A stretch of 33,335 bases of DNA. Origin: a virus. The notes below the pieces were generated by a model. It saw nothing but the letters and a program-made list of their open reading frames with translations, had not been told where the DNA came from and did not search any database. The stretch spans positions 1 through 33,335 of the IMG/VR virus record IMGVR_UViG_3300024262_000139; one strand, given 5' to 3'. Below are positions 12,498 through 26,653 of this stretch, piece by piece. How positions within the stretch are numbered: the first letter of the stretch is position 1; every line of letters starts with the position of its first letter. A program made the position numbers and the translations under genes.

Positions 12498-13289
12498 TCA
12501 AAAAAATGTATTTTCCGACGACTGAATTATAGGTTCATATTGTTCAATTGGAAAATTAAATTCTTCTGCATTTTTTGGATATGGTAAAATTGGAGCTTTT
12601 AATTTCTTTTTAAGCTTCTTAGTTTCCCCCTTGCCAGTCAGAAAGTAGATATATCTATGTTTTGCTGGTTCTTGTTTTCTCCAAAAGGTTTGACCAACCG
12701 TTTTTCTCAAATGTTCAACATTATGACTGCCGTATTTTTCAAATACAGTTCGTGAGTGAATCCATTTATACGGATCATTCGTCAATGACAATCCGTAATT
12801 AGCCATTAGTTGTTGTTTTCCTGCTCCTTGATATAACCAGTTTGTTGCTTGGTATATTCCACCCAAATGTTGTTGGTCTGGATCAGAGTATGAAATAAGC
12901 AGCTTAACATGAGGTCTGTGTTTTTTAAGGAAATGAAAACTCTGTGAAATGCAATAACTTTCTATATTCTTTCCGAAATTATCTAAAATTGCTAACCTTG
13001 TCAATTCATACACTTCTCCCATTTCAATATTTTCACATATTGATTTAGCAGCGCTTCGCCCGACTGGATTTCCATACACCAACACCCCAATTAATTCATC
13101 ATTAACACAATCCAAAAACTTATGTTCCTTTTGAGTGGAATAAAAAATCCCAATGGCACAAGAACACATAGTCCAAGCGTGGCTATAATGATTTTTTATT
13201 ATAAAGGGTTTTGCAGTAGAGGAACTAATTTCTCTAATTGATACTCTGCTAGTATCAACATATCCTTCGGTATTTTGTATTTCTTGCAT
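12498..13289 (-). CDS. mom: Mom-like adenine modification protein
   Basis: This resembles phage Mu Mom, a GNAT-like enzyme that converts adenine in DNA to a carbamoylmethyl derivative and blocks many restriction enzymes. Matching segments are IIKNHYSHAWTMCSCAIGIF near the N-terminus, ELIGVLVYGNPVGR, VYELTRLAILDNFGKN, then LLISYSDPDQQHLGGIYQAT followed by NWLYQG. I choose the ATG at 13289; an upstream in-frame TTG at 13298 is less likely. The start lies inside the 3' end of the HNH gene (91-nt overlap, different frame). A second, frameshifted copy of the first 44 codons lies upstream at 14105-14238. No promoter of either class sits at this start, so expression may depend on the upstream transcript. 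Confidence 0.75.
   Translation of the reverse strand: MQEIQNTEGYVDTSRVSIREISSSTAKPFIIKNHYSHAWTMCSCAIGIFYSTQKEHKFLDCVNDELIGVLVYGNPVGRSAAKSICENIEMGEVYELTRLAILDNFGKNIESYCISQSFHFLKKHRPHVKLLISYSDPDQQHLGGIYQATNWLYQGAGKQQLMANYGLSLTNDPYKWIHSRTVFEKYGSHNVEHLRKTVGQTFWRKQEPAKHRYIYFLTGKGETKKLKKKLKAPILPYPKNAEEFNFPIEQYEPIIQSSENTFF
13156..13175 (-). repeat. 20-bp identity with the mom fragment (copy in intact mom)
   Basis: These 20 bases, encoding WTMCSC and the first base of the next codon, are identical to 14118-14137 in the frameshifted mom fragment. The flanking codons have diverged at many positions. Confidence 0.85.
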
Positions 13290-14056
13290 AATTTCCAATC
13301 CTTTGATTGTTTATTGTTACTTTTGGTCAATCCATGCCAACTTAATGGGGATTTACCATCAAGTTTTCGTATTTTATTAATTTTTGACATATAATTAGAA
13401 GCATGTGACCCACCAACCACTTTATAAACATTAGCAGAACTATCTTCAAATTCATAAATAAATGTCCCAGTCGTAACTTTTATATGAGATATACGTTCCC
13501 TCTTGGATTCTTTGATGTCATTATTATTTTCACAAATCAGTTTGCAAATCCACATAAAATATTCATTTGAATATGAATTCTTCATGATATTTATATCTTT
13601 GTGAATATATTGAATATTTGATATATCATATCCACGGGAAGAATCAATTCTATCAATGGAAAAATTATCACAGGTTAGTTGCATTCCTGATAAATTACAT
13701 TTATAATCTTGATTTTCAGCTAAAATGATAAGATCATCATATGATACATTGAAGTCAAAATATTTTGTATTTCTCTTTAGTTTGTTGTATTTTGAAATTG
13801 GGAAAAACAAACTTCCACCTTTCCAGTTAGGATGACCGTCTTTTGATCTATTCTTTTGACACCCACAGCTCTTAACCCTTCCGTTCAATAAATAAAATGC
13901 CACTATTTTTTTTTCAGTGCCACATTTACATTTAGTCAATATTTCAGCACCATTTTTACTTCCCAAAGATACGCTTTCATTGATCACTGTCAAATCCCCA
14001 AAGAAATCACCCTTTGAAAATTTACCTTCATATTTAGACTTTCCTTTTTTACCCAT
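13199..14056 (-). CDS. HNH homing-type endonuclease next to mom (285 aa)
   Basis: Residues 43-66 carry CKCG and SCGC, a zinc-binding pair common in phage HNH nucleases. The core is SIDRIDSSRGYDISNIQYIH (133-152) followed by INIMKN, the DRID-GY-N-N form of HNH. The C-terminal third is basic and probably binds DNA. I choose the ATG at 14056, which has the late-type motif 3 nt upstream; a GTG at 14092 is an alternative. The last 30 codons run into the mom coding region in another frame. The gene lies between a broken mom 5' copy and the intact mom gene, which points to homing into this locus. Confidence 0.85.
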   Translation of the reverse strand: MGKKGKSKYEGKFSKGDFFGDLTVINESVSLGSKNGAEILTKCKCGTEKKIVAFYLLNGRVKSCGCQKNRSKDGHPNWKGGSLFFPISKYNKLKRNTKYFDFNVSYDDLIILAENQDYKCNLSGMQLTCDNFSIDRIDSSRGYDISNIQYIHKDINIMKNSYSNEYFMWICKLICENNNDIKESKRERISHIKVTTGTFIYEFEDSSANVYKVVGGSHASNYMSKINKIRKLDGKSPLSWHGLTKSNNKQSKDWKLCKKYKIPKDMLILAEYQLEKLVPLLQNPL

Positions 14057-14059
14057 GAT

Positions 14060-14069
14060 TATAAATATA
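14060..14069 (-). promoter_or_regulatory. Late-type motif TATATTTATA before the HNH gene
   Basis: Minus strand TATATTTATA, 3 nt before the ATG at 14056. Confidence 0.6.
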
Positions 14070-14104
14070 CAACACGAATCAAAATAATACACAAATATGT
14101 TAAT

Positions 14105-14238
14105 TCATATACCGATAGCACAAGAACACATAGTCCATGCATGAGATAATGGTATTTCACAATCAAGTCTTTGGCGACTTTTGAGTTTATTTCACGAAGT
14201 GATACTCTAGATGTATCTACATAACTTTCTTCAGGCAT
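14105..14238 (-). pseudogene. mom 5' fragment, frameshifted
   Basis: The reading frame from the ATG at 14238 gives PEESYVDTSRVSLREINSKV and continues to KYHY. At about 14146 one base appears missing relative to mom. In the shifted frame the sequence continues SHAWTMCSCAIGI and stops at TGA (14105-14107). Over 41 aligned residues 32 match the intact Mom N-terminus, but the DNA has diverged apart from a 20-bp identity. It retains a full early promoter (TTGACA-17-TATATT-7-ATG). The homology ends just before the HNH gene. It is best read as the remnant of a second mom copy disrupted by, or carried with, the HNH gene. Without frame correction the ORF reads on to 14059. Confidence 0.8.
14118..14137 (-). 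repeat. 20-bp identity with intact mom (copy in fragment)
   Basis: Identical to 13156-13175. It is the only long exact match between the two mom 5' ends and lies close to the HNH gene, so it is a candidate recognition or recombination site. Confidence 0.85.
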
Positions 14239-14245
14239 ATTGCCC

Positions 14246-14274
14246 AATATATCACATTATAGTGAGTTTGTCAA
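14246..14274 (-). promoter_or_regulatory. Early promoter before the mom fragment
   Basis: Minus strand TTGACA (14269-14274), 17-bp spacer, TATATT (14246-14251), 7 nt to the ATG at 14238. The -35 box overlaps the TGA stop of the receiver gene. Confidence 0.78.
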
Positions 14275-15180: not shown

Positions 15181-16368
15181 TTACCCTAAGTCTTCTGTGT
15201 CAGTAGAATCTTCTGTTTTATCCCACAACCTACGAACTCTATCCTTTACAGCGTTTTCACCGTCGCCCATTTTCTTATAAACATTCTTTCCACTTTCGGA
15301 TGATGGGTCAAATATATCAATCTGCCCGCATGAAGCATCAAACATACATGGGAATGTTAATCCGTCAGCGCCAAAACGATTTTTAATAATATGCATTCTT
15401 GCTGTGTTTTGCAGTTTATCTTCTCGTTTTCTTGATATGGAAGCAACAAAGTCAGCAGTCATAATTTTTCTATATGAATCAGCGATACCACCAGCTTCAA
15501 TGATTTCTTCATTAGTCTGACTTCTGTTTGCTTGTGAAGCAGTCCAAACTGGAATTTGCAATTCACCAGCCATAGCACGAAGTTCTTCATAAATCCCACC
15601 TGACTCTTGGTATGAATTTGAATTCTTCTCCGCTGAAATAGGTCTTAGTATATCAGCATAATCAACAATGACCAAATCCACCTTTTTATTCGTAAGCATT
15701 TGAATTCTATCAATGTAACTTCTCAGACTTAATGCTGAAACTGTTTTTATTGGGTAATATTTGATCTTCAAGAATCCATCAAGGCTTTCAAGTGATTCTA
15801 CAACCTTGTTTTTGTTTTTCACAATTGACTGAAAATCTATACCCGTGAAACAACAGTCATAACGTCTTCCAACATACTTTTGCTGTAACTCCATAGTAAA
15901 GTGAACCACATTTTTACCTTGTCTGAGAGCTTCCGCTCCAACTTTGTTCAAACACCATGAATTATGACTCAATATACCATTTGAATAGTAACAATGGACA
16001 TCTTCTACGCTAATATCAAACAATATCTCAGATTTTCCAGATTTTTGTTCAACTACCTTTGTATGACCCGACTCGGTTTCAACTAACTGATCGGTTGATA
16101 AATCCTTCGTGAATACCCACTCACCATTAGACTTTACTCTGTGTTTTGGTGAGGTTTTGAGTGTTTTATTATTCCCGAAATATGTAGTCACCGTATTCTG
16201 TTTCTCAGTTCTGAACATATTAGCAATTCGTTTGTATCCGGCTGGAGTTTTCACCCGAATATCAACGGGTGGTGTTTTGGAAGCATGTTCTTCATCGGGA
16301 ATCCCAATGGAAGAAAATAATTCTTTAATTTTTACTTTTTTCTGTGTGTTTCTGATTTGTATATTCAT
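15181..16368 (-). CDS. Split intein C-half fused to helicase C-terminal part (gp41-like)
   Basis: Residues 1-136 are the C-terminal intein half: VKTPAGYKRI, the block B motif TSPKHRV (72-78), then DISVEDVHCYYSNGILSHN ending in His-Asn, with Ser137 as the +1 nucleophile. Residues 137-395 continue the replicative helicase from the Walker A serine: SWCLNKVGAEALRQG, the Walker B-like VDLVIVDYADILRP, then WTASQANRSQ and HIIKNRFGADG. Joined to the 213-residue N-extein the product is 472 aa, close to T4 gp41 (475 aa). The ATG overlaps the stop of the endonuclease gene (ATGA), so translation is probably coupled. The acidic C-terminus looks complete. Confidence 0.9.
   Translation of the reverse strand: MNIQIRNTQKKVKIKELFSSIGIPDEEHASKTPPVDIRVKTPAGYKRIANMFRTEKQNTVTTYFGNNKTLKTSPKHRVKSNGEWVFTKDLSTDQLVETESGHTKVVEQKSGKSEILFDISVEDVHCYYSNGILSHNSWCLNKVGAEALRQGKNVVHFTMELQQKYVGRRYDCCFTGIDFQSIVKNKNKVVESLESLDGFLKIKYYPIKTVSALSLRSYIDRIQMLTNKKVDLVIVDYADILRPISAEKNSNSYQESGGIYEELRAMAGELQIPVWTASQANRSQTNEEIIEAGGIADSYRKIMTADFVASISRKREDKLQNTARMHIIKNRFGADGLTFPCMFDASCGQIDIFDPSSESGKNVYKKMGDGENAVKDRVRRLWDKTEDSTDTEDLG
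15961..16368 (-). other. C-terminal split-intein half (IntC, 136 aa)
   Basis: It covers intein blocks from the segment after block A through block G, including block B (TxxH in TSPKHRV), block F (DVHCYYSNG) and block G (ILSHN). Cleavage and ligation are expected between Asn136 and Ser137. Block B lies in this half, unlike in gp41-1-type split inteins where it is in the N half. Confidence 0.88.
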
Positions 16369-17285
16369 CTTAAAAAATTGTTTATTCTGTTTATTTGTTC
16401 GTCTTTGTTATTCAACCAATCATTTTCCCATATCTCAATGACATCATATCCTTTTGATATCAAATACTCTTTTCGGAGTTTATCACTTTTCCATTTATCT
16501 TTAGCTTTGATTGGAAGAAGATGTTCATTGATGATTTCATCAGCTTTATACATTTCAGGATTAGCATGCCAAAAATCACCATTAACTTCAATTATTTTAT
16601 TACCTGAAATGATATCAACAATATAAGGGCCGATTGGAATGTTTGATTCAGCATCACCGCTAACGTTATTTTTCACTTGAGAGTATACCTCCATCTCTAA
16701 TTTGGAAGTCCCATTAAATTTCCCAAAGTGTTTAGCCCATTTTGCGGCACCCACTTGAGATATCAATTTTTTCATTGAGTTTGATATCTTCCGTTTAGAT
16801 TCCTCAGTTCTAATATGTCCCTTGAACTTAGAAGATTTGGAAGAATTTTCCGATTGGAGTTTATAAATCTCTATTTTAGCTTCTTCTTCTGTCATGTCAT
16901 ATTTATCCACCCAATACTCAATCCTCCATACTGATCTATCATGTGTATACTTTTCAGCTGATTTGTTTGCATTTTCAGTTTGAATCTCTGAAATTTTTCT
17001 TTTCGCCTCAAATTCTGAATAACCACGTTTCAACCAATAATTAACTGAAAAAATAGATCCCCCTTCTTTCTGAGTATTGGACATTTTCAATCGGTTTTCT
17101 GGATCACTCATCCATTTTTTAGATGTCTCTGACAATCGTTTTCTAACTTCATCGGAAACAATTGCAAGTTTAGTCTCTCCAAATTGAGACTTGTAATCAT
17201 CGCCTGATATTTTGTGAGTTCGGTTTAAATGTGACACTAAACTTTTCATTTTACGTCCGCATATTTTACATGTTATTAATTCCAT
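16365..17285 (-). CDS. Vsr-like (EDxHD-type) homing endonuclease (306 aa)
   Basis: The N-terminus has a C2H2-like finger, CKICG(6-10) with SHLNRTH (18-24). Two related repeats follow, VNYWLKRGYSEFEAKRKISE (81-100) and IEYWVDKYDMTEEEAKIEIY (122-141), with NUMOD3-like helices such as RTEESKRKISNSMKK. The C-terminal nuclease domain is Vsr-like: IVDII with D224, then IIEVNGDFWHANP with E233, D237 and H240, and VIEIWENDW. This fits the endonuclease family described between split-intein halves in 'fractured' phage genes. It sits between the two helicase-intein halves, has a late-type motif before its ATG, and overlaps the IntC gene by 4 nt. It probably promotes homing of the split-intein cassette. 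Confidence 0.85.
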   Translation of the reverse strand: MELITCKICGRKMKSLVSHLNRTHKISGDDYKSQFGETKLAIVSDEVRKRLSETSKKWMSDPENRLKMSNTQKEGGSIFSVNYWLKRGYSEFEAKRKISEIQTENANKSAEKYTHDRSVWRIEYWVDKYDMTEEEAKIEIYKLQSENSSKSSKFKGHIRTEESKRKISNSMKKLISQVGAAKWAKHFGKFNGTSKLEMEVYSQVKNNVSGDAESNIPIGPYIVDIISGNKIIEVNGDFWHANPEMYKADEIINEHLLPIKAKDKWKSDKLRKEYLISKGYDVIEIWENDWLNNKDEQINRINNFLR

Positions 17286-17288
17286 GGG

Positions 17289-17298
17289 TATAAATATA
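17289..17298 (-). promoter_or_regulatory. Late-type motif TATATTTATA before the homing endonuclease gene
   Basis: Minus strand TATATTTATA, 3 nt before the ATG at 17285, inside the intein break. It may let the endonuclease and C-half be transcribed apart from the N-half. Confidence 0.6.
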
Positions 17299-17318
17299 CA
17301 AAAATGTATAAATTTATG

Positions 17319-18182
17319 TTAAGATTTACCGTTTCCACTTGAATTATTTTTTAAATTTTCAAGCTCCCACAAAATATTGTAAACTTGCCACCCAAAACAC
17401 TTCTCTACTCCATTGATAATTCCCGACATGTCATATTGATTAAATGGGTCTATCCAGAGGGTAAATATACTTCCATCATTACGGGTGAAGTCTATTCCGA
17501 GTTCCTGATATTGAATTTCAATTTCAGTATTAGGACCAACGCATTTTCCAATTCCCGCTGGAGCAACAAATACCCCTAATTCACCTGGGCCTAATCCACC
17601 ATCCATAAGATCATCAACGACATCCCAGTTTGTCTTTACAGCGTCACGACAGTCTTCAAGCAATCGTTCATCAATCTCAGTCATATAATCATGACCATCA
17701 TCACGTTCCATGCCTGCTTTTAAGGCTTCATCAACCGTATGCTTTATTTTTTCATATTCTCCATTTTTAAGCAAATCAGCAGAATCAAGGATTGCAGATT
17801 TCAATTTTTGATTTTTACAAAATTCAAGAAATGCACTGCGAATATAATTTAAATCACTGTCGTCAATATTTGCATATACCTGACGTAATGACTCAATGAC
17901 TGCTTGTTTAGTGACGACATCGCTTACGCTATTTAGTTCATTTTTGAACACTGTCATCGTTGGTATATCTTTGTATTTTTGAAAATACTCGCCTATTGTA
18001 ATCACGATCCATTTGTGACTTTCATTTTCAAAAAAATCAACATGAAGGATATCTAAAATTTGTTGAAGGAAAGCTTTACCAGTACCTGTTCCTGATAGAT
18101 CTTTTTTTGGATCTAATAGTGCTGATAAGCATTTAATTTGGAAGTCGTTTCCAAATTTTTTAAGTGTGTCTATTTCTGCCAT
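17319..18182 (-). CDS. Helicase N-terminal part (gp41-like) fused to split intein N-half
   Basis: Residues 1-213 are a DnaB/gp41-type helicase: an N-terminal helical domain, a linker ending TNWDVVDDLMDGGLGPGELG, and the start of Walker A, VAPAGIGK. Position 214 is Cys of an intein block A, CVGPNTEIEIQ, and 74 intein residues follow to the stop. The helicase is therefore cut between Lys and Ser of the Walker A motif, and only protein trans-splicing with the product of 15181-16368 would restore ATPase activity. The helicase works at the replication fork, loaded on the lagging strand with SSB and primase. A TATATTTATA motif lies 22 nt before the ATG, with no Shine-Dalgarno site. Confidence 0.9.
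   Translation of the reverse strand: MAEIDTLKKFGNDFQIKCLSALLDPKKDLSGTGTGKAFLQQILDILHVDFFENESHKWIVITIGEYFQKYKDIPTMTVFKNELNSVSDVVTKQAVIESLRQVYANIDDSDLNYIRSAFLEFCKNQKLKSAILDSADLLKNGEYEKIKHTVDEALKAGMERDDGHDYMTEIDERLLEDCRDAVKTNWDVVDDLMDGGLGPGELGVFVAPAGIGKCVGPNTEIEIQYQELGIDFTRNDGSIFTLWIDPFNQYDMSGIINGVEKCFGWQVYNILWELENLKNNSSGNGKS
17322..17543 (-). other. N-terminal split-intein half (IntN, 74 aa)
   Basis: It starts with the catalytic Cys214 and block A (CVGPNTEIEIQ). It lacks a TxxH block B. The remaining 60 residues (for example GSIFTLWIDPFNQYDMSGII) do not match the usual intein N2 region and are not explained. Confidence 0.82.
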
Positions 18183-23118: not shown

Positions 23119-24024
23119 TTATAAAAAAAAGATACAAGCACCGATAATTACTATCACCACAGCACCTACAGCAATTAACATTTGCTTCTTCTTTTTCTTT
23201 TTTTCAACCTTTTCTTGGTTGATTTGTTTTGATTGTTTTTTAGCAACAAAGTCAGCTTCTTCAAATGATTCAAGGTAATAAAATCCGCTGATTGATATTT
23301 GTTTTGCAAGATCGTGGTCAATGAAGAAAAATCCATTGTCACCCCAAGTTGAATCCCAACTATTTTGACATTCCCAGTATAGTTTTCCATTGATTGTTTT
23401 CCAACCAATTATACTTACAGCATGTCCGCCGTTTGTGTTTTCGCTATTGAGATATTGTTCTGAATCAATTATTCCAGAACCTGGTATATTATAAACATAG
23501 TCATATGTCAAAAATGACCACCATAAGTTTTCATTCTTTATCAATCTCTTAACTTTTGCTTTACAATTTTCATCATTTACATCAACAAAATAATAAGCAT
23601 GGATTTTTCGTTTGGCGGCATCATCTTTTGCAAATTCAGCAGGAGTTATATCTTCATTTAACTTGTTATATGGGTAATATTCTTCTAAACAAACTCCGTC
23701 TATCCGCAATCCCTCACAAGCACCTGTAATGGAGGTTCCGCTGTATGTTTCACCTTTCCATTCATCATAATATTTGGCGTTTTTATAAACCCACATAGAA
23801 CTCAAATTATCATCTTTAAATTTGGGTATGCTATTGAGAACCACTTTTCCACTCATACCAACACAAGCACCAATATTTCCTTGATTCTGAATTGATATAT
23901 TTTGATTTCTCCGTGAAAATTCAAGTTCGGTTGGTTCTACTATATTTAATGCTGAATGTGAATCTTGAATTTTCCAATCCATTCCATCAACATTACTTGG
24001 GAATACATTACAAACAGGTTTCAT
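23119..24024 (-). CDS. Papain-like (C1) cysteine peptidase with C-terminal membrane anchor
   Basis: Catalytic residues of the papain family are all present: oxyanion Gln48 and Cys54 in IQNQGNIGACVGMSG (the usual six-residue spacing), His201 in NTNGGHAVSIIGW, and Asn221 in YWECQNSWDSTWGDNGFFFI. Papain pro-region sequences are absent; the first 40 residues are short and unassigned. After the catalytic domain a charged linker (KVEKKKKKKQ) leads to one hydrophobic helix at 283-301 (AVGAVVIVIIGACIFFL) ending at the C-terminus. With no signal peptide, this predicts a cytoplasmic peptidase tail-anchored in the inner membrane. The substrate is unknown. It overlaps the 132-aa gene by 4 nt (ATGA). Confidence 0.85.
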   Translation of the reverse strand: MKPVCNVFPSNVDGMDWKIQDSHSALNIVEPTELEFSRRNQNISIQNQGNIGACVGMSGKVVLNSIPKFKDDNLSSMWVYKNAKYYDEWKGETYSGTSITGACEGLRIDGVCLEEYYPYNKLNEDITPAEFAKDDAAKRKIHAYYFVDVNDENCKAKVKRLIKNENLWWSFLTYDYVYNIPGSGIIDSEQYLNSENTNGGHAVSIIGWKTINGKLYWECQNSWDSTWGDNGFFFIDHDLAKQISISGFYYLESFEEADFVAKKQSKQINQEKVEKKKKKKQMLIAVGAVVIVIIGACIFFL

Positions 24025-25273: not shown

Positions 25274-26653
25274 TTAAACTTTTAGTTTTTGTAACTGTTT
25301 ATAATTATTACCCGCCTTAATTTTTATTGGAAATTTATTGTTATACATCATAATTCTTTTAATTTCCCTCACCAAGTCAATTCCATCATCTTTGTGAAAG
25401 TCAATTAAGATAGAGTCATACGTATACAATACAATTTTAGATTTTGAATTTTTCAAAAGCATATTCACATCTTTTGTAATTCCCAATGCATGTTCCGTTT
25501 CATAGGCTTGGAGAATGTAATTGCTGAGTTTGCTTGGGTTTACATCGTCTCCAATGTGATCAAGATTGATTTGTCTACTGTAAACAGGAGTCTCAACATA
25601 TCCATTTTCAAGGAAAAAATCCCAACGTTGGGTAATGTATTCATTCCATTTTTTGAAATATGGTATATTTTTATACTTATGTTCAACTCCACCATACAGT
25701 TGTCTGAATGTAAGTGATTTTGAATTATTCAACTCCACAATATTCAGTTTCTTTTTGTGGAAATAATATGTACCCAAATACTCATAAATGTTCAAATCAG
25801 GATCAATGTCATAATTAATTAAATTTGCAATCAAATGAGGATGGAATGCTGTAAAGTCAAAATCAATCAATTTCCCATCGTTTCCAAAACGTGAAATGAA
25901 ACATTCTCTGGTATCATCATCTTTATTTAGAGCTGCAAAGTTAATTCCATCAAAAGCATTTGAAGGTCTGCCAGTGGATGTTAAAATGTTGTACTGAGAA
26001 TATATTAGATTATCATTAATATGTTTTGTTTTTTCAGTACTGAAACTTCTTCCAAACTTTTCAACGTCAACAAATAATCCATTTTTTTCAATTTGACATA
26101 AAGTATCCAATATATTATCATTCAATCCTAAAAAAGATTGTAAATGTAAACGGTTAGATTCTGAATTCAATACCTCATTCACTTTTGCGTAAATTTGTTC
26201 AAAGATTTCAAGGTGTTTATTCAAAGGAATAATCGTATTCAAAATATTACACTCTCTAAAATTGAATCTGTAAAAATTATGTACTGGTAGATTAATCTCA
26301 GTGTTTATTTCAATGTTATTCAAGTATCCTAGAATCTGTACATCTAACGTATCACAGACATCGCATAATTGACAAAAACTCTTCTTGTTGACCACGTATC
26401 GTTTGTTTGTCATTGTGTTGAGTATTTGGCAGCACCTGCTAACAGGAATATCACTCAAAGTATCTGTATGGTTTATGCAAATTGCATATGTTACATCATT
26501 TGAGATGGACTTCACAAAAATGATACTAATTTCATCTGAACATGGATGTTTGTATGAAGATACGGGTATGCAATGTAAAAATACATTTCTGTTTTTTATT
26601 TTTTGCTTGAAATCTTCTAATTCTAATTCTGTTTGAATAATTTTAAAATCCAC
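25274..26653 (-). CDS. Divergent family A DNA polymerase (459 aa)
   Basis: The C-terminal half has the pol I palm and fingers motifs. STGRPSNAFDGINFAALNKD (226-245) is the family A STGR...N signature. Motif A is DFDFTAFHPHLIA with D266. Motif B is K312-x3-F316-x3-Y320-G321 (KSLTFRQLYGG). Motif C is YTYDSIL with D413. Two oddities: motif C reads Tyr-Asp-Ser where most have His-Asp-Glu, and the protein is short for a pol I. The N-terminal 150 residues show no DxE exonuclease site, so proofreading is probably absent. It may be a replicative, repair or degenerate polymerase. The start is GTG, placed by a promoter (TTGACA-17-TATCTT) ending 6 nt before it. Confidence 0.78.
   Translation of the reverse strand: MDFKIIQTELELEDFKQKIKNRNVFLHCIPVSSYKHPCSDEISIIFVKSISNDVTYAICINHTDTLSDIPVSRCCQILNTMTNKRYVVNKKSFCQLCDVCDTLDVQILGYLNNIEINTEINLPVHNFYRFNFRECNILNTIIPLNKHLEIFEQIYAKVNEVLNSESNRLHLQSFLGLNDNILDTLCQIEKNGLFVDVEKFGRSFSTEKTKHINDNLIYSQYNILTSTGRPSNAFDGINFAALNKDDDTRECFISRFGNDGKLIDFDFTAFHPHLIANLINYDIDPDLNIYEYLGTYYFHKKKLNIVELNNSKSLTFRQLYGGVEHKYKNIPYFKKWNEYITQRWDFFLENGYVETPVYSRQINLDHIGDDVNPSKLSNYILQAYETEHALGITKDVNMLLKNSKSKIVLYTYDSILIDFHKDDGIDLVREIKRIMMYNNKFPIKIKAGNNYKQLQKLKV

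What the first reader, a model, noticed from the sequence alone, without database searches (positions are those of the whole stretch)
15181..18182. Helicase broken inside Walker A by a split intein whose break lies between blocks A and B
The gp41-like helicase is encoded in two halves. The first ends GIGK then an intein Cys; the second ends the intein with SHN and resumes with the Walker A Ser. The exteins add up to 472 aa, as in T4 gp41. Fractured helicase genes with split inteins are known, but in gp41-1 and gp41-8 type inteins block B (TxxH) is in the N half. Here TSPKHRV is in the C half, so the break is much earlier, as in the atypical AceL-TerL type. IntN also carries about 60 residues with no visible intein match.
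Basis: partly seen in the sequence, partly recalled or inferred. Interest (0 to 1): 0.85.

Follow-up and report, generated by a model that had tools for sequence, protein, structure and literature searches.

The report
Split helicase with early-broken mobile intein
A phage replication helicase is made as two proteins that a split, self-splicing intein should join; the intein is broken unusually early, carries an extra folded piece, travels with its own DNA-cutting gene, and that gene has a copy of its presumed target just upstream, probably a self-regulating switch.

Summary
The gp41-like helicase is encoded in two halves. The first ends GIGK, then intein Cys1; the second ends the intein in SHN and resumes at the Walker A Ser (213+259=472 aa). 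Block B is in the C half. An EDxHD-type homing endonuclease gene (HEG) lies between. The layout recurs in about 20 viral lineages. Two relatives encode the intein in one open frame, and one of these models as a confident intein fold (pLDDT 93; Z 19.6 to VidaL).

Two corrections. The break lies between the first two strands (S1, as in VidaL and PolB16), not after the first helix as in AceL-TerL. The "60 unmatched residues" are a conserved folded insert in that hairpin; published natural short IntN are 15-37 aa.

Beyond the finding: the cassette moves horizontally. A copy of the left half of the insertion site sits upstream of the HEG start (16 of 21 lineages; controls 1 of 38 and 3.4%), at near-constant spacing but in changing reading frames. 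Own-site copies also occur at a second helicase site (inverted) and in Vibrio phage vB_VmeM-32. Best read as operators for HEG autorepression, known for I-TevI; I know of no report for split-intein HEGs. Trans-splicing, cleavage and repression are untested.

The parts
17544..18182 (-). Helicase N half (N-extein, 213 aa), ends ..APAGIGK inside Walker A
   Evidence: phrog_19 E 2e-24; intein-free relatives continue GxGK|SW
17508..17543 (-). IntN residues 1-12, CVGPNTEIEIQY: Cys1, block A, first hairpin strand
   Evidence: C1 G3 N5 T6 I8 Y12 invariant; strand 7-20 in the model of the one-piece relative
17343..17507 (-). IntN insert, about residues 13-67: conserved strands plus helix inside the first intein hairpin
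   Evidence: conserved in about 20 lineages, dN/dS mostly 0.04-0.06, folded in the model at pLDDT about 86-92, present in one-piece inteins L019 and L065
17319..17342 (-). Variable IntN tail (..SGNGKS) and stop
   Evidence: not conserved as protein; overlaps the DNA-level site copy
17325..17336 (-). Copy of the Walker A codons (GGAAACGGTAAA) upstream of the endonuclease gene; putative operator
   Evidence: pattern in 16 of 21 HEG loci, 1 of 38 at the other site, 0 of 5 without HEG; 39 nt before the HEG start here
17289..17317 (-). AT-rich inverted repeat and TATTTATA box before the HEG start; possible late promoter
   Evidence: same box about 11 nt before 15141, 12477 and 9807 gene starts; mild folding signal, pooled z -5.1 by mononucleotide shuffle
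16365..17285 (-). EDxHD (Vsr-like) homing endonuclease gene, 306 aa
   Evidence: MTES_1575, DUF559, NUMOD3 (below cut-off) and vsr matches; E197, D224, H240, D268 nearly invariant in 20 relatives
15961..16368 (-). IntC (136 aa): second hairpin strand, helix, block B SPKH, C-terminal SHN
   Evidence: Hint/intein profiles; S73, H76, H135, N136 invariant
15181..15960 (-). Helicase C half (C-extein, 259 aa, resumes S+1 W) and stop
   Evidence: DnaB_C E 5e-15, phrog_19 3e-43

Best explanation
A fractured gp41 helicase gene of a T4-like phage. IntN (74 aa) and IntC (136 aa) associate, fold into one Hint domain, and by class 1 splicing (Cys1, block B SxxH, penultimate His, Asn136, Ser+1) join GIGK to SW, restoring the Walker A loop and an active helicase. 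The break is in the first beta hairpin (S1). IntN carries a folded insert, inferred to help IntN dock on IntC. The EDxHD endonuclease encoded between the halves is inferred to cut intein-free helicase genes near GxGK|S, so that the IntN-HEG-IntC cassette is copied in by homing. A copy of the left half-site, mostly 43-52 bp before the HEG start, is probably an operator through which the endonuclease represses its own gene. Shown by sequence: the anatomy, the recurrence, one-piece relatives, the predicted fold of one relative, horizontal transfer, the site copy. Inferred: splicing in this phage, cleavage, repression, the docking role.
For: Both halves and splice-junction residues. About 20 lineages with the same layout. 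One-piece relatives. AF2 model pLDDT 93, pTM 0.85, Z 19.6 to VidaL over 137 residues. Intein-free alleles at GxGK|SW. Transfer: cassette 87-88% identical between L011 and L009 or L013, helicase flanks 68-73%; trees disagree for L059. Site copy tests at two sites plus vB_VmeM-32.
Against: No splicing, cleavage or repression was measured. The fold was modelled on a one-piece relative (49% identical in IntN, 40% in IntC), not on the window's own pair. The site copy is missing in L006 and imperfect in L016, L053, L064 and L068, and the loci are related, so counts are not independent.
Confidence: 0.88

Rival explanations
1. The site copy upstream of the HEG is not an operator but a scar or homology arm left when the HEG invaded the intein at a target-like sequence.
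For: Collaborative-homing models expect HEGs to insert near their own target. In this window an HNH gene is preceded by a partial copy of the Mom gene, which looks like such a scar.
Against: No right half-site is found on the other side of the HEG. The copy persists in diverged lineages at near-constant spacing to the HEG start, is lost without a HEG, and is inverted at the second site.
Confidence: 0.3
2. The two halves do not splice: they act as a two-subunit helicase, or the locus is decaying.
For: Genes in pieces without splicing are known in phages (ribonucleotide reductase case cited in PMC10448857).
Against: The break is inside Walker A, between Lys and Ser; all splice residues are conserved; exteins and intein are under purifying selection; two relatives are re-fused as complete inteins.
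Confidence: 0.05
3. The IntN insert has a role other than docking IntN to IntC, for example in folding, solubility or helicase partner binding, or is a tolerated remnant.
For: It is kept in the one-piece inteins L019 and L065, where no docking of separate chains is needed. Its length varies and in L053 IntN is only 33 aa.
Against: It is conserved and predicted to fold as part of the hairpin, and most split members keep it.
Confidence: 0.45

Closest known systems
VidaL split intein (PDB 6vgv) and PolB16 OarG
   Same: Natural S1 break in the first hairpin, long IntC; VidaL is the top Foldseek hit
   Different: Their IntN are 16 and 15 aa; here 74 aa with a folded insert
AceL-TerL, GOS TerL
   Same: Atypical early break, block B in IntC
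   Different: Break after helix alpha1 (S2), IntN 25-37 aa
gp41-1, gp41-8 and other canonically split inteins of fractured phage genes (Dassa 2009, not readable here)
   Same: Fractured gp41 gene with a HEG between the halves; gp41-1 is a sequence relative
   Different: Block B in IntN, short IntC; different insertion site. A gp41-8-like intein occurs as a second split in some of the same helicases
gp41 of Vibrio phage vB_VmeM-32 (isolate)
   Same: Early-split intein in Walker A with an endonuclease gene between and an own-site copy upstream of it
   Different: IntN 27 aa without insert; inserted at GVN|TGKS, not GxGK|S
I-TevI, I-TevII, I-TevIII operators of phage T4
   Same: Copy of the homing site just upstream of the HEG (PMC2988022)
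   Different: Group I introns and other enzyme families; repression shown for I-TevI, not tested here

Membership tests
Class 1 split intein | Cys/Ser1, block B T/SxxH, C-terminal His-Asn, Cys/Ser/Thr+1 | tested here: met
   C1; S73 and H76; H135 and N136; S+1
Class 1 split intein | Hint fold of the joined halves | tested here: met
   one-piece relative only: pLDDT 93, Z about 16-20 to many inteins
Class 1 split intein | trans-splicing activity | not testable with these tools
   needs co-expression
S1 atypical split (VidaL, PolB16) | break between the first hairpin strands | tested here: met
   strand 7-20 in IntN, partner strand 71-81 and helix 82-88 in IntC by alignment to L019
S1 atypical split (VidaL, PolB16) | short IntN (15-37 aa in reported natural cases) | tested here: not met
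   74 aa here, 33-74 in the split family; a size range, so filed as a variant
S2 atypical split (AceL-TerL) | break after helix alpha1 | tested here: not met
   helix segment KIKELF is in IntC
Canonical gp41-1/gp41-8 split | block B in IntN | tested here: not met
   block B at IntC 73-76
EDxHD homing endonuclease | conserved E, D, H, D catalytic pattern and DNA-binding modules | tested here: met
   E197, D224, H240, D268 nearly invariant; vsr, DUF559, NUMOD3 matches, some weak
EDxHD homing endonuclease | cleaves the intein-free site | not testable with these tools
   needs enzyme assay
HEG autorepression operator (I-TevI type) | homing-site copy upstream of the HEG | tested here: met
HEG autorepression operator (I-TevI type) | copy overlaps the HEG promoter; enzyme binds and represses | tested here: inconclusive
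   promoter-like box nearby; binding not testable here

The most novel reading that the evidence does not exclude
Endonuclease genes lodged between the halves of split inteins carry a copy of their own homing-site half upstream as an operator, at three unrelated insertion positions so far and in either orientation. Transcriptional self-restraint like that of I-TevI would then be a general feature of fractured-gene mobile elements; and a natural split intein can carry a folded domain in its first hairpin.
Probability: 0.6. Interest if true: 0.72.

Novelty: new variant of a known kind. Interest (0 to 1): 0.6.

Why it matters
It adds a new natural split-intein architecture (S1 break, folded insert, split and one-piece versions of one intein), useful for asking how split inteins arise, re-fuse and find their partner, and as a source of orthogonal tools. 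The site copies make regulation of intein-associated homing endonucleases directly testable, and may allow their targets to be read from sequence.

Tried and rejected
Walker-A-like C-termini of IntN as a protein motif: rejected, because in other loci the copy lies in other reading frames or past the stop. Right half-site near the HEG 3' end: not found. Plain 21-nt matching per locus was weak for most loci; the codon pattern taken from the site and the pooled tests were clear. Direct-orientation copy at the gp41-8-type site: not found, it is inverted. Genome contigs: no relative of IntN. Isolated phages: no match to IntN. Pseudomonas phage MIJ3 and Agrobacterium phage Atu_ph07 matches looked like inteins by coverage but are intein-free helicases. 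Alignments A3 and A6 misplaced IntC rows and were not used for conclusions. Two TerL split inteins (Va1, CP21) were looked at but not used to test the site copy, because their genes overlap or are interrupted several times. Dassa 2009 and a DOI tried for the VidaL paper are not held.

Full report
Observation. Minus-strand ORFs 17319-18182 and 15181-16368 encode the two halves of a gp41/DnaB-like helicase with intein sequence at the inner ends: HelN 213 aa ..APAGIGK | IntN 74 aa, and IntC 136 aa ..SNGILSHN | HelC 259 aa SWCLNK... Profiles support helicase on both halves and Hint/intein on the C half. A 306-aa endonuclease gene (16365-17285) lies between; its stop overlaps the IntC start (ATGA). 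Intein-free relatives run straight through GxGK|SW. Surrounding genes (rIIA, UvsX, gp32, 5'-3' exonuclease) point to a large T4-like phage; the record is a 33-kb IMG/VR fragment.

Recurrence. Searches with IntN, IntC and their alignments found the same HelN-IntN / HEG / IntC-HelC layout in about 20 viral lineages. Variants: one-piece inteins without a HEG (L019, identical in DNA to L020; L065); split without a HEG (L046, L052, L059); a HEG remnant (L049). The one-piece forms sit among split forms in the trees, so halves appear to have re-fused, or been split, more than once.

The extra residues. IntN residues 13 to about 67 are conserved (G16, W30 and P33 invariant in the first alignment), with dN/dS 0.04-0.06 in most informative pairs and 0.21 in one, and occur inside the one-piece inteins. 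AF2 of the L019 intein (204 aa, 46-row alignment) gives pLDDT 93 and pTM 0.85: strand 7-20, then the insert (strands 26-31, 36-39, 42-45, helix 46-62), then the partner strand 71-81. Foldseek's best hit is VidaL; VIA gives Z 19.6 with 137 residues aligned at 1.9 A. The insert therefore sits within the first hairpin and the break is of S1 type. Natural atypical splits are reported at S1 (VidaL, PolB16) or S2 (AceL, GOS TerL), with IntN 15-37 aa (PMC13014065). The model is of a relative at 49% (IntN) and 40% (IntC) identity; the window's own two chains could not be modelled jointly.

In-protein control. L003, L015, L052, L060 and L065 carry a second split intein in the C half at ASQxxR/S, canonical like gp41-8, with block B in the N half. 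This makes the early break of the first one plain.

Mobility. Between L011 and L009 or L013 the cassette is 87-88% identical in DNA while the helicase on either side is 68-73%. L059 groups with L061 by helicase but with L056 by intein, both with good support. Both indicate transfer of the cassette between diverged helicases. The HEG has the E, D, H, D residues and DNA-binding modules of EDxHD enzymes, the family of I-Bth0305I (PMC3943268).

Site copy. Several IntN end in GxGKS/T. At the DNA level this is a copy of the Walker A codons before the insertion point, present in other loci in other frames or after the IntN stop. The pattern GGNNNNGGNAAR, taken from the site itself, is present in 16 of 21 HEG-bearing loci against 0.25 expected by shuffling, 1 of 38 split-intein regions at the other site, and 43 of 1250 background windows (binomial p 7e-20, not corrected for relatedness). 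None of five loci without a HEG has it (Fisher p 0.003 with the remnant counted as HEG). The distance to the HEG start is near constant, mostly 43-52 nt, 39 in the window. For 28 HEG regions at the gp41-8-type site, own-site similarity is in inverted orientation (pooled Z +5.9; best 19 of 24 in L069), with cross-site controls near 0; the inverted orientation was noticed by eye before it was tested. The Vibrio phage vB_VmeM-32 case was then looked at as a fresh test: 17 of 24 direct, 0 of 500 shuffles. Homing-site copies upstream of I-TevI (shown) and of I-TevII and I-TevIII (proposed) act as autorepression operators (PMC2988022). By analogy the copies here are probably operators; a scar or homology arm is the main rival. 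Loci are related, so the counts are not independent events.

Verdict. A real, functional-looking, atypically split intein and mobile element: a known kind with a new architecture, plus a probably general regulatory feature that, to my knowledge, has not been described for split-intein endonucleases. Dassa et al. 2009 could not be read here, so a prior mention there is not excluded.

Noticed in passing
window 12498-14247 (minus): An HNH endonuclease gene (13199-14092) lies directly upstream of an intact Mom-family gene and is itself preceded by a partial, frameshifted copy of the 5' part of Mom (14059-14247): perhaps a HEG insertion scar or another target copy.
   Followed up: partly
L003, L015, L052, L060, L065 (helicase C half): A second, canonically split gp41-8-like intein with its own endonuclease gene (a remnant in L052) breaks the same helicase again at ASQxxR/S, so the helicase comes in three pieces, or two pieces in L065 where the first intein is in one frame.
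   Followed up: partly
L150 (Vibrio phage vB_VmeM-32, KU160494): This isolated phage has gp41 fractured by an early-split intein (IntN 27 aa) with an endonuclease gene between, mostly annotated as hypothetical proteins; its RecA-like recombinase record also bears an intein C part.
   Followed up: partly
L154 (Vibrio phage Va1), L158 (Campylobacter phage CP21): Terminase genes broken by early-split inteins; in Va1 the endonuclease appears fused in frame to the IntC and terminase C part.
   Followed up: no
window, upstream of 9807, 12477, 15141, 17285: A TATTTATA box about 11 nt before several gene starts, while other genes have TTGAC..TATAAT-like sequence: possibly two promoter classes.
   Followed up: no
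window 25274-26653 (minus): A 459-aa ORF matches only the C-terminal part of a phage DNA polymerase profile (phrog_17), so the polymerase is partial or strongly diverged here.
   Followed up: no
window 23119-24024 (minus): A papain-family cysteine protease gene (Peptidase_C1, 5e-17) in a phage replication region.
   Followed up: no
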